Shown here piece after piece: positions 42,601 to 48,600 of a stretch of DNA of 64,000 nucleotides. The number at the start of each line of letters is the position of its first letter. The stretch's first letter is position 1. The stretch lies in NCBI GenBank assembly GCA_964036295.1, contig OZ038467.1:10958670-11022669 (forward strand). Reading direction: 5' to 3'. The notes beneath the pieces are model-generated. The model did not search any database. It was not told where the DNA came from and saw only the letters and a program-made list of their open reading frames with translations. The position numbers and the translations under genes were made by a program. Origin of the DNA: Plumapathes pennacea. Its lineage: Eukaryota; Cnidaria; Anthozoa; Antipatharia; Myriopathidae.

Positions 42601-45600
42601 AATCTGTATTTCGAGCTTGGGAGTGAAAGGGTTATTAAAATGTTAATCTGGTGTTTACTGTTGCAGCACGAATTCTTTGTGAGGATACCCAGCCACCCTA
42701 CAGCCCGGTATGTACAGTACGAGTATGTCGGGATTGACCCTATTCAACCTCCTCCAAAACCAGGTTTTCCACTTAGAACTAACCAAGGCCGAAACTCTTG
42801 GATTTAGATTAGTAGGTTAGGTTATAGACGGTGCATAGCCGTTATTGCACATGTTGTTAAGTGGTAAACCAGGTTTTGGTGGAGGTTAAATGGTACCAAT
42901 TCTATGTCAAATAGGCAGGCAGCGGCCTTTGCAAGCTCTTTCAATCTGCACAAAGCCTTCATGTTGTTATAATATTACTGTTTGTCGTGACATTGGATAC
43001 AATTGCCGAATGGTTGTAAAGCGAAAATAAATAAATAATACATAAAAACACAGAGGACGTACCGCGTGGAATGAAATGTTCGCGGGATCTAATTTTCGTG
43101 GACTTTCCAGCAACCCGTGAAAATCCGTGAAGATTTACTCGATTTATTTATAAATATTTCCGAACTTCAATTAAGTTGACCACAAACAATATTGCGCCCT
43201 CTTCGGCGGGAACACCTGCCCGAGATCCGCGAAAATTTGTCCCCAATAGTAAAGTCTGAAACCCAAATTCGCGAAAATTTGTTCCCGCAAAAAATCACGG
43301 CAATTTCCCGTGAAAATTTCATGCTACACGGTAGGGGTGGGATTGGTACAGGAAGGTACACCGTGCATGTGTTATAAGTCTGATCGGACACTTGTAAGTG
43401 TTCCTTCTTGTCAATGCAGGTGTTTCTTGGTCCTCAGAGTGCGTTCATGGTACCGGACACTCCCTCTCCTCTTGTGCCTGAGTCGCCGTTGCTCAATAAA
43501 AAGTTGGACTTTAGTAAGTTCCTTCATCAGTTAAAATGTGCAGTTATGCAGTAATTTTTTCCTTCCAGGCCATCATCATCATCATCATCATCATCATCAT
43601 CATCATCATCATCATCATCATCATCATCATCATCATCATCATCATCATCATCATCATCATCATCATCATCATCATCATCATCATCATCATCATCATCATC
43701 ATCATCATCATCATCATCATCATCATCATCATCATCATCATCATCATCATCATCATCATCATCATCATCATCATCATCATCATCATCATCATCATCATCA
43801 TCATCATCATCATCATCATCATCATCATCATCATCATCATCATCATCATCATCATCATCATCATCATCATCATCATCATCATCATCATCATCATCATCAT
43901 CATCATCATCATCATCATCATCATCATCATCATCATCATCATCATCATCATCATCATCATCATCATCATCATCATCATCATCATCATCATCATCATCATC
44001 ATCATCATCATCATCATCATCATCATCATCATCATCATCATCATCATCATCATCATCATCATCATCATCATCATCATCATCATCATCATCATCATCATCA
44101 TCATCATCATCATCATCATCATCATCATCATCATCATCATCATCATCATCATCATCATCATCATCATCATCATCATCATCATCATCATCATCATCATCAT
44201 CATCATCATCATCATCATCATCATCATCATCATCATCATCATCATCATCATCATCATCATCATCATCATCATCATCATCATCATCATCATCATCATCATC
44301 ATCATCATCATCATCATCATCATCATCATCATCATCATCATCATCATCATCATCATCATCATCATCATCATCATCATCATCATCATCATCATCATCATCA
44401 TCATCATCATCATCATCATCATCATCATCATCATCATCATCATCATCATCATCATCATCATCATCATCATCATCATCATCATCATCATCATCATCATCAT
44501 CATCATCATCATCATCATCATCATCATCATCATCATCATCATCATCATCATCATCATCATCATCATCATCATCATCATCATCATCATCATCATCATCATC
44601 ATCATCATCATCATCATCATCATCATCATCATCATCATCATCATCATCATCATCATCATCATCATCATCATCATCATCATCATCATCATCATCATCATCA
44701 TCATCATCATCATCATCATCATCATCATCATCATCATCATCATCATCATCATCATCATCATCATCATCATCATCATCATCATCATCATCATCATCATCAT
44801 CATCATCATCATCATCATCATCATCATCATCATCATCATCATCATCATCATCATCATCATCATCATCATCATCATCATCATCATCATCATCATCATCATC
44901 ATCATCATCATCATCATCATCATCATCATCATCATCATCATCATCATCATCATCATCATCATCATCATCATCATCATCATCATCATCATCATCATCATCA
45001 TCATCATCATCATCATCATCATCATCATCATCATCATCATCATCATCATCATCATCATCATCATCATCATCATCATCATCATCATCATCATCATCATCAT
45101 CATCATCATCATCATCATCATCATCATCATCATCATCATCATCATCATCATCATCATCATCATCATCATCATCATCATCATCATCATCATCATCATCATC
45201 ATCATCATCATCATCATCATCATCATCATCATCATCATCATCATCATCATCATCATCATCATCATCATCATCATCATCATCATCATCATCATCATCATCA
45301 TCATCATCATCATCATCATCATCATCATCATCATCATCATCATCATCATCATCATCATCATCATCATCATCATCATCATCATCATCATCATCATCATCAT
45401 CATCATCATCATCATCATCATCATCATCATCATCATCATCATCATCATCATCATCATCATCATCATCATCATCATCATCATCATCATCATCATCATCATC
45501 ATCATCATCATCATCATCATCATCATCATCATCATCATCATCATCATCATCATCATCATCATCATCATCATCATCATCATCATCATCATCATCATCATCA

Positions 45601-48600
45601 TCATCATCATCATCATCATCATCATCATCATCATCATCATCATCATCATCATCATCATCATCATCATCATCATCATCATCATCATCATCATCATCATCAT
45701 CATCATCATCATCATCATCATCATCATCATCATCATCATCATCATCATCATCATCATCATCATCATCATCATCATCATCATCATCATCATCATCATCATC
45801 ATCATCATCATCATCATCATCATCATCATCATCATCATCATCATCATCATCATCATCATCATCATCATCATCATCATCATCATCATCATCATCATCATCA
45901 TCATCATCATCATCATCATCATCATCATCATCATCATCATCATCATCATCATCATCATCATCATCATCATCATCATCATCATCATCATCATCATCATCAT
46001 CATCATCATCATCATCATCATCATCATCATCATCATCATCATCATCATCATCATCATCATCATCATCATCATCATCATCATCATCATCATCATCATCATC
46101 ATCATCATCATCATCATCATCATCATCATCATCATCATCATCATCATCATCATCATCATCATCATCATCATCATCATCATCATCATCATCATCATCATCA
46201 TCATCATCATCATCATCATCATCATCATCATCATCATCATCATCATCATCATCATCATCATCATCATCATCATCATCATCATCATCATCATCATCATCAT
46301 CATCATCATCATCATCATCATCATCATCATCATCATCATCATCATCATCATCATCATCATCATCATCATCATCATCATCATCATCATCATCATCATCATC
46401 ATCATCATCATCATCATCATCATCATCATCATCATCATCATCATCATCATCATCATCATCATCATCATCATCATCATCATCATCATCATCATCATCATCA
46501 TCATCATCATCATCATCATCATCATCATCATCATCATCATCATCATCATCATCATCATCATCATCATCATCATCATCATCATCATCATCATCATCATCAT
46601 CATCATCATCATCATCATCATCATCATCATCATCATCATCATCATCATCATCATCATCATCATCATCATCATCATCATCATCATCATCATCATCATCATC
46701 ATCATCATCATCATCATCATCATCATCATCATCATCATCATCATCATCATCATCATCATCATCATCATCATCATCACAAAATGTTTTGGCGAAGCATTAC
46801 AATACGATTTATCATCACAGATTATTCACCATGTGGGGAAAGCAAAAACAAAAGAGTGTCCATATCAAGCAAGCCCATAGCAGCCGATTCAAGAACGACT
46901 CCAAAATCAACCAAGTCTGAGTCTCTGAAAGGGAAACTCCAGACTACAGCCACATCTCCCCGCTCGCCTTGCTGTCCAGGACCCGCACACACACCAGTTC
47001 AAAAGACGAGAAAAACACCGAGGGACATGCTGCTGACGGGTTAGTAACGCGGGTTCTAAACTAACAGTGGAACCCCCGGCCCCCTACTGGTCGACCTTTG
47101 TCGCTTGCGTGTCACCAGAGAGGGGCCTAATTTAAGTCATGCTCCTGTAGCATTTTATACTGTAATACATATCGCAATGTTGCACACTGTAACGTTTATG
47201 CAAAGGAATCGCCCACTGGAGGTGGAATGAGCAACTCCTGAATTTTGACGCTGAATGATAGTATTTTGAAGATTATTTAGAGCGAGCTAGTGGTTGAGGG
47301 AAGTTTCAAAAAGCCCGTACGCGGATTCAGATGTTCGGATAGCAGAACGATGCTTATAAGATATTTATGTGGCATATCTCGACTGAGAAAATATAGTGCC
47401 GGTCCGTACCGTACAGTTATGGACCGGTAAGTTGACCAATCAGAGCGTGCGTGCCATCTGTACCATGTAATAAATGATCTTATTTTAGTGACACAAATTT
47501 AATTTCTTCCTCCCAGATTCCACGCAGGCAAAAAAGCGAAAAAGGTTGGGGTCAAAGAAGGACGAGAGGAGTGGTGAGGAAAGTGATAACTTAACAAAGA
47601 ATAAGAAAGTGAAGACAGTACAGGAAGACTTGCTGTTAGTAACGGGCACGGAGACAACGAAAATAAGTGGGAAGACTTTAAAGGGAAGACTTACGACACG
47701 CGGCAAACGAAAGGCCTTAAATGTTGAAGGTAACTAACCTGTTCCCCTTAATAATCTCCTAAGCATCTACAGTAGTGCGTAATTTTCCTATTTTTTTTTT
47801 CTTTCCTGGACAAAATGTTCGAGTACAATGTTAGAAGAATTGCTAGTCTGACCAGGTTTAACCCCAGCAAGAGATCGGCTGGCATTTTCACTACAGTACA
47901 CTCAACTTCATACTCTTGACTTTTTATTGTAATTTGCCTTTGTTCACTCCAAGGGTTACTGCCCCCTTCTTGCGTGGCGGCTGCTTTGTCAGTCGCACCT
48001 TTCTCTCAATATATCAAGTGCCCGTCTGTTACAATGACACTTTTGGACCTCTGCTTATACGAACTACTGTCCTTCCACCGAATTGGCTGATAAATAGTCT
48101 GTTCCAGACTCTCAGATACTGAAAGCAACTGGCTAAAAAAAATAAAGCCCGAAGGACTGTTTTGCACTTGGCCTGCCCTTGTTTCAAAACAGGCAAAGGA
48201 CAACCTGGAAATGGCCTATTTAACGCAGTGACTACGAATTCGGTGTTTTAACGCAACTTCAGATTGGCATCGCATTACAAATTTTAGCAAATAAGTTGCA
48301 GATTTGTTCATACTTTTCCTTAAATTTTTCGGAATAACGAAATTGCGAGGAAGAAATTTCACTTGATCGCTATAACTATAATAAACCTTTAGCGCAGGTT
48401 TGAATTAGTGATCATATTTTTGTCTGTTGCTTGTTTATTGCTCTCCAGAAAACGAGAGCAACTCTGAAACGCACAGAGAAACTGACGACCCTTTAGCAAC
48501 GGCAAAGAAACAGGAGGTTGTCACACAGAAATGCCGTTCGACGGAAACTGAGAAGGAGAAGGGCGAGTTGAGTGATTCCGGCGTGTCCGTCACCGAAGAA

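What the first reader, a model, noticed from the sequence alone, without database searches (positions are those of the whole stretch)
43571..46774. Unbroken 3.2-kb CAT microsatellite inside MCPH1
1,068 consecutive CAT units without a visible interruption is extreme for any genome; most microsatellites of this size decay by point mutation. Purity implies very recent expansion, active homogenisation, or an assembly artefact from read extension. Its place in a DNA-damage-response gene makes it a candidate for length polymorphism with effects on splicing or expression.
Basis: seen in the sequence. Interest (0 to 1): 0.88.

Follow-up and report, generated by a model that had tools for sequence, protein, structure and literature searches.

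The report
Giant CAT repeat in coral MCPH1
A flawless run of 1,068 CAT triplets sits at an exon edge of the microcephalin gene of what looks like a black coral, and it is one of a class of giant clean CAT runs scattered over that genome, which makes this animal a natural place to study how DNA triplet repeats suddenly grow huge.

Summary
The gene is microcephalin (MCPH1): BRCT pieces on both sides match only Microcephalin in the PDB. The 290-Mb genome has a mitochondrial gene order that fits black corals.

Two facts change the reading. First, the tract is neither alone nor the longest: other pure CAT arrays here measure 4,350, 4,065, 3,467, 2,870, 2,558, 2,015 and 1,969 bp. Of 37 arrays in two fully measured start classes, 30 are 201-721 bp, 7 are 1,969-4,350 bp, and none lies between. 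This looks like two regimes, not a tail.

Second, the tract starts 2 nt after a strong 3' splice site and is in frame with the exons on both sides. Use of that site gives Ser-(His)1069-Lys; seven later frame-keeping AGs would remove the tract.

Best account: a real, recent, large-step expansion of a microsatellite at the end of a small MCPH1 intron, probably spliced out. No reads, RNA or related animal genomes were available, so length, splicing and age are inferred; an assembly artefact is unlikely but not excluded.

The parts
43571..46774 (+). (CAT)1068, uninterrupted; (ATG)n on the other strand
43420..43513 (+). MCPH1 exon before the tract (VFLGPQSAFMVPDTPSPLVPESPLLNKKLDF), ends in phase 1 at a GTAAGT donor (43514)
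   Evidence: reading frame and splice consensus; no RNA evidence
43557..43568 (+). acceptor A1: TTTTCCTTCCAG, part of a 12-base pyrimidine run ending in AG, two bases before the first CAT; use of it puts 1,069 His in frame
46801..46820 (+). acceptor A2 (AATACGATTTATCATCACAG), first frame-keeping acceptor after the tract; use of it removes the tract
   Evidence: 8 pyrimidines of 13 against 11 for A1
46960..46979 (+). further frame-keeping acceptor (CCGCTCGCCTTGCTGTCCAG), 10 pyrimidines of 13; use of it would drop 53 more codons
46821..47039 (+). MCPH1 exon after the tract if A2 is used (with A1 the exon is 43569-47039, 3,471 nt); donor GTTAGT at 47040
   Evidence: open frame; nearly the same stretch (46824-47044) has one match in the genome, itself
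47517..47599 (+). start of the next MCPH1 exon (DSTQAKKRKRLGSKK...), in frame with both variants; its end was not determined
41488..41700 (+). N-terminal BRCT of MCPH1 (part)
   Evidence: residues 10-80 of the ORF 41461-41820
49919..50098 (+). first C-terminal BRCT of MCPH1 (part)
   Evidence: residues 53-112 of the ORF 49763-50212

Best explanation
The tract is a real, young, large-step expansion of a (CAT)n microsatellite at the 3' end of a small intron of MCPH1 in a black coral. It belongs to a class of giant pure CAT arrays in this genome. Most CAT arrays of 198 bp or more stay below about 0.75 kb; an array that passes some length in that region is carried to 2-4 kb in few large steps, most simply by replication restart or template switching inside the repeat, which copies whole blocks and so keeps the array pure. 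The expanded DNA is most likely removed from the mRNA through a frame-keeping acceptor behind the tract. Shown: the run, its purity in the assembly, the two-class lengths in the sample, the gene, the splice-site anatomy. Inferred: that the molecule has this length, its youth, the threshold, the copying mechanism, which acceptor is used, and the black-coral label.
For: Purity and extent. Flanks are consecutive coding pieces of one gene, in one frame, with MCPH1 BRCT pieces on both sides. CAT is by far the favoured motif of those tried: (CAT)66 windows 10,310 + 5,617, its reverse reading (TAC) 1,186 + 0, (TTA)67 1,393 + 1,390. Lengths: 30 of 37 arrays 201-721 bp, 7 of 37 at 1,969-4,350 bp, none between; a power law fitted to all 37 reproduces an empty band with 7 or more above it in 2e-5 of 200,000 simulations. 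All 11 long arrays that could be sized exceed 1.8 kb. Four long arrays with clean flanks (14,179 bp) hold no interruption. Without the tract the A2 intron would be 103 nt.
Against: No reads, so length and purity rest on the assembly. The band 722-1,968 bp was chosen after seeing the data; three long arrays were not sized (L131, L133, L137) and one array ends near 0.76 kb (L144). Only 8,470 of 15,927 (CAT)66 windows lie in arrays read end to end. CAT and ATG show no DNA hairpin in the folding model, so the usual structural driver is missing. A1 is the stronger acceptor and is in frame, which an intronic tract does not need.
Confidence: 0.5

Rival explanations
1. The tract is coding. Acceptor A1 is used, and this MCPH1 carries 1,069 consecutive histidines between its N-terminal BRCT and its middle region.
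For: A1 has the best pyrimidine tract of the 8 frame-keeping AGs found (11 of 13, against 8 for A2 and 10 for the AG at 46979); Ser-His(1069)-Lys reads on without a stop into the next two exons. In an intron that agreement would be a coincidence (my rough estimate about 1 in 8).
Against: The A1 intron would be 55 nt and the exon 3,471 nt, both unusual for an internal animal exon (recalled). The 16 codons behind the His run (KMFWRSITIRFIITD) look hydrophobic beside the polar linker. A protein with 1,069 His seems hard to tolerate.
Confidence: 0.25
2. Ordinary slippage with one heavy-tailed length distribution; the gap at 0.7-1.9 kb is sampling luck and no threshold exists.
For: The sample is small, the band was picked after the fact, two start classes (CT, GAT) were not searched, and three long arrays were not sized.
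Against: A power law fitted below 800 bp predicts 0.01 arrays above 1.9 kb where 7 were seen; a power law fitted to all 37 gives the pattern in 2e-5 of simulations. The later, separate probes found three sizable long arrays, all above 1.8 kb.
Confidence: 0.22
3. Assembly artefact: the assembler or a gap filler extended a short CAT tract, here and elsewhere.
For: No reads were available; perfect purity over kilobases is what mechanical extension would give.
Against: The flanks are contiguous MCPH1 sequence in one frame; long arrays of many different lengths lie on at least six contigs (C1, C2, C5, C6, C9, C11), some inside decayed CAT-like DNA and some in clean DNA; CAT-class repeats are known to be common in a black coral from unassembled reads (PMC4226868, passages).
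Confidence: 0.12
4. The array has a regulatory job: its transcript offers over a thousand UCAU sites, the kind bound by Nova-type splicing proteins, and so tunes splicing.
For: 1,067 TCAT sites counted; (CAU)n RNA is unstructured in the model. That Nova binds YCAY is recalled, not tested.
Against: Every CAT array has these sites, and such arrays lie at many places; conservation could not be tested.
Confidence: 0.04

Closest known systems
Intronic GAA/TTC expansion of IIL1 in Arabidopsis Bur-0 (PMC5006647: outline with abstract, two passages)
   Same: A large triplet expansion in a housekeeping gene of a wild organism, in its third intron there and at an intron end here.
   Different: GAA/TTC motif; a known effect on transcript level at high temperature; a single locus. 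Here the motif is CAT, the effect is unknown, and many loci are expanded.
Large-scale GAA-TTC expansions of Friedreich's ataxia (PMC10484681: passages)
   Same: Triplet arrays that gain large blocks, tied there to fork stalling, reversal and restart.
   Different: GAA forms a triplex; CAT is not a purine-only strand and shows no hairpin in the model. The mechanism is borrowed here by analogy.
CNBP CCTG expansions of myotonic dystrophy type 2 (PMC9462847: abstract and passages)
   Same: Intronic array (location recalled) of 75 to over 11,000 units; normal alleles of mean 134 bp against expanded alleles of 344-46,685 bp.
   Different: Two classes of alleles at one human locus, with mosaicism; here two classes of loci in one assembly. 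Most expanded CNBP alleles in that paper were not pure (2 of 9 samples were).
ATC-class microsatellites of black corals and sea anemones (PMC4226868: passages)
   Same: Same motif class; ATC is the commonest trinucleotide in the black coral Tanacetipathes (37.7 per Mb) and in Metridium (157.6 per Mb).
   Different: That survey rests on reads with a trimmed mean of 192 bp and could not show kilobase arrays; in the black coral Leiopathes ATC is rare (9.7 per Mb).

Membership tests
Microsatellite | head-to-tail units of 1-6 bp | tested here: met
   3-bp unit, 1,068 copies
Large intronic triplet-repeat expansion (FXN, IIL1 type) | hundreds of pure triplets at one gene locus | tested here: met
Large intronic triplet-repeat expansion (FXN, IIL1 type) | lies wholly in an intron | tested here: inconclusive
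   intronic with A2 or a later acceptor, exonic with A1; no RNA
Large intronic triplet-repeat expansion (FXN, IIL1 type) | short allele in other individuals, unstable length | not testable with these tools
   one assembly, no reads, no population data
Large intronic triplet-repeat expansion (FXN, IIL1 type) | motif forms a non-B DNA structure | tested here: not met
   no DNA hairpin for CAT or ATG in ViennaRNA; the same test is also negative for GAA and TTC, whose triplex it cannot show, so it excludes hairpins only
Homopolymeric amino-acid (polyhistidine) coding repeat | translated in frame | tested here: inconclusive
   frame open on both sides with A1; use of A1 unknown
Microcephalin (MCPH1) | N-terminal BRCT of microcephalin type | tested here: met
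   3 of 3 PDB matches are Microcephalin; Pfam gave no family for this ORF
Microcephalin (MCPH1) | C-terminal tandem BRCT of microcephalin type | tested here: inconclusive
   first C-terminal BRCT met (2 of 2 PDB matches Microcephalin); the second was not searched

The most novel reading that the evidence does not exclude
This black-coral genome holds a bistable population of CAT arrays: past a critical length of roughly 0.75-1.8 kb an array runs away to several kilobases while staying pure, with a motif that forms no hairpin. One such array has grown between competing acceptors of MCPH1, in frame, so that the gene either makes a protein with 1,069 histidines or lives by shifting to an acceptor behind the array.
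Probability: 0.3. Interest if true: 0.75.

Novelty: new variant of a known kind. Interest (0 to 1): 0.5.

Why it matters
Large-step triplet expansion is known mostly from a few disease loci and reporter constructs (my general knowledge). A wild animal genome with dozens of arrays of one motif in two separate size classes would let the threshold question be tested over many loci at once, and with a motif that lacks the usual hairpin. The MCPH1 site adds a clean test of how splicing copes when a repeat grows just behind a strong acceptor while frame-keeping acceptors remain downstream.

Tried and rejected
Naming the species. Contig 24 is a 17,711-bp mitochondrial genome. Its rns-cob neighbourhood fits the black-coral order given in PMC6890759 (passages), against rns-cox2 in sea anemones. 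Zoanthids and other hexacorals were not compared. Genome notes found were looked at as listings, one of them in passages; none was matched to this assembly. The species stays open.

A shared flank or transposon: the 30-40 bp flanks printed show no common unique sequence by eye; many are decayed CAT-like DNA. No formal comparison was made.

Hairpin-driven expansion: not supported by folding.

My first thought that A2 is the only acceptor behind the tract was wrong: one search lists seven frame-keeping AGs there, and the one at 46979 has more pyrimidines than A2.

An error of mine: the pieces of the C9 array were joined with a one-base overlap, which split it into 726 and 1,101 bp. Its extent, 10819275-10821243 (1,969 bp), comes, and one search uses that.

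Not done: CT and GAT start classes were not searched, 2 AAT starts were not probed, and 3 long GT arrays were not sized. No animal genome of a relative was on hand, so whether 46775-46820 is exon could not be settled. The 10-kb surroundings of other long arrays were read for open frames but not searched for families.

Literature: searches. No listing showed a report of kilobase-long pure CAT arrays in a cnidarian; that says nothing beyond those listings.

Full report
The observation. The window holds one uninterrupted run of exactly 1,068 CAT units at 43571-46774; with a partial unit it reaches 46776. I also read it directly. No other CAT or ATG run of 8 or more units exists in the window, and outside the tract there is no CAT-class run of even 4 units (0 in 60,650 bases).

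The gene. The ORF 41461-41820, 1.75 kb upstream, matches 3 PDB sequences at E<=0.001, all Microcephalin (best E 2.3e-11). The ORF 49763-50212, 3 kb downstream, matches 2, both Microcephalin (best E 3.1e-13), and Pfam BRCT. Pfam found nothing in the upstream ORF, in the ORF 48412-49356 or in the piece 46775-47044. The stretch 46824-47044 just after the tract has one match in the genome, itself. So the tract lies in one MCPH1 gene and its flanks are true neighbours.

The organism. The window is G000:C6:10958670-11022669 of a 290,015,204-bp assembly in 24 contigs. Contig 24 (17,711 bp) carries COX1 in pieces, two rRNAs and two tRNAs. By my reading of the translations under table 4 it also has a split ND5 around ND1 and ND3, a frame of LAGLIDADG look in the COX1 intron, cob next to rns, and nad4L-cox2-nad4-nad6-atp8-atp6. 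PMC6890759 (passages) places rns-cob in the black coral Chrysopathes and speaks of rns-cox2 in anemones; PMC10980879 (passages) says that one gene order is known in Antipatharia; PMC12129002 (passages) reports COX1 and ND5 introns in all black corals it studied.

One of a class. Windows of (CAT)21 number 17,514 + 12,683 on the two strands, against 1,410 + 190 for the letters read backwards, TAC. For (CAT)66 the numbers are 10,310 + 5,617 against 1,186 + 0; (TTA)67 gives 1,393 + 1,390. The backward control is itself a real repeat, so it is a comparison of motifs and not a background. To count arrays I searched for starts of runs of about 198 bp or more by the letters before them: C 29, A 8, TAT 24, G 4, TT 6, GT 20, AAT 2. 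CT and GAT starts were not searched.

Lengths. All 37 C and A starts were read to their ends: 30 runs of 201-721 bp and 7 runs of 1,969, 2,015, 2,870, 3,206 (this tract with its partial unit), 3,467, 4,065 and 4,350 bp. One TT array was also read: 2,558 bp (L050). The other 53 TAT, G, TT and GT starts were probed with 42-60 bases about 0.7 kb in. Six were wholly pure there; 47 were not, among them L144 (97% periodic; its end lies near 0.76 kb) and L082 (89%). Of the six, further probes place the end of one at about 1.84-2.2 kb and of one at about 2.24-2.6 kb, and one spans 2,013 bp; three were not sized. A probe shows purity only where it lies. In all, 14 of 91 starts are long, and the 11 that were sized all exceed 1.8 kb. 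Arrays read end to end account for 8,470 of the 15,927 (CAT)66 windows, so nearly half of this DNA lies in arrays that I did not read through. Among the 38 arrays read end to end the MCPH1 tract is fourth.

Two regimes. An exponential fitted to the 30 short arrays predicts about 1e-8 arrays of 1,969 bp or more among 37. A power law fitted below 800 bp predicts 0.22 above 800 bp and 0.01 above 1.9 kb. A power law fitted to all 37 gives an empty 722-1,968 bp band together with 7 or more arrays above it in 2e-5 of 200,000 simulations. The band was chosen after seeing the data, so these figures flatter the case; the later probes are a separate sample and agree as far as they go. Long arrays have clean flanks more often: 3 of 7 against 2 of 30 (one-sided Fisher p 0.037), with a cut-off of my choice and some flanks read over as little as 34 bp. 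Four long arrays with clean flanks (window, C2, C5, L050; 14,179 bp) hold no interruption, which would bound substitutions at 2.1e-4 per site if nothing homogenises them. The arrays were picked as pure runs, so only the clean flanks make this meaningful.

The exon 43420-43513 ends in phase 1 before a GTAAGT donor. Acceptor A1 ends at 43568, after 12 unbroken pyrimidines and two bases before the first CAT. It gives Ser, 1,069 His, then KMFWRSITIRFIITDYSPCGESK... in the frame of the next exon too, with a 55-nt intron and a 3,471-nt exon. Acceptor A2 ends at 46820 and also keeps the frame, with a 3,307-nt intron that would be 103 nt without the array. Six more frame-keeping AGs follow; most look poor, but the one at 46979 has 10 pyrimidines of 13, against 8 for A2 and 11 for A1. 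I favour removal of the tract, because of intron and exon sizes and the odd peptide behind the His run, at roughly 2 to 1. Sites were judged by consensus and pyrimidine count, not by a trained model.

How it could arise. Large-step gain by fork stalling, reversal and restart is reported for GAA repeats (PMC10484681, passages). In the folding model CAT and ATG form no DNA hairpin, nor do GAA and TTC, while CTG, CAG and CGG do; (AUG)n RNA folds, (CAU)n RNA does not. So the step from large expansion to a given structure is open. CAT-class repeats are the commonest trinucleotide in the black coral Tanacetipathes but not in Leiopathes, from reads too short to show giant arrays (PMC4226868, passages).

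Verdict. The array is exact in the assembly, lies in MCPH1, and is striking in size and purity, but it belongs to a class. The class, its two apparent size regimes and the in-frame position behind a splice site deserve attention. Reads, RNA and relatives are missing.

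Noticed in passing
window 24659-24867; like units at 24105-24139, 37552-37586, 54352-54430; perhaps C9:757079-757120 (L116): A minisatellite with units such as ACCCTATTTCAGACCAAAATTTGCAATTTTCG; similar words recur in the window and perhaps beside a long CAT array on C9, so it may be a dispersed family.
   Followed up: no
window 42394-42583: A 94-bp tandem duplication (2 copies, 96% matches) between MCPH1 exons, about 1 kb before the CAT tract.
   Followed up: no
window 15871-16014 and 53029-53198: A perfect (TTA)48 run and a decayed GAGT/CGAGT array: other simple repeats of ordinary size in the same window.
   Followed up: partly
whole genome G000: The backward control found 1,186 windows of (TAC)66 on one strand and none on the other, which suggests one or a few giant TAC arrays as well.
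   Followed up: no
window 33433-37477: Pieces of a patatin-like phospholipase gene with membrane-like stretches (Pfam Patatin in ORF 33433-34503), upstream of MCPH1 on the same strand.
   Followed up: no
L029 (G000:C6:2577131-2587130): Beside the 2,870-bp CAT array lies an open frame of 226 codons that looks to me like a zinc deaminase of AID/APOBEC type (HTELQFLADM...PCTGCADKL). Not searched against any family.
   Followed up: no
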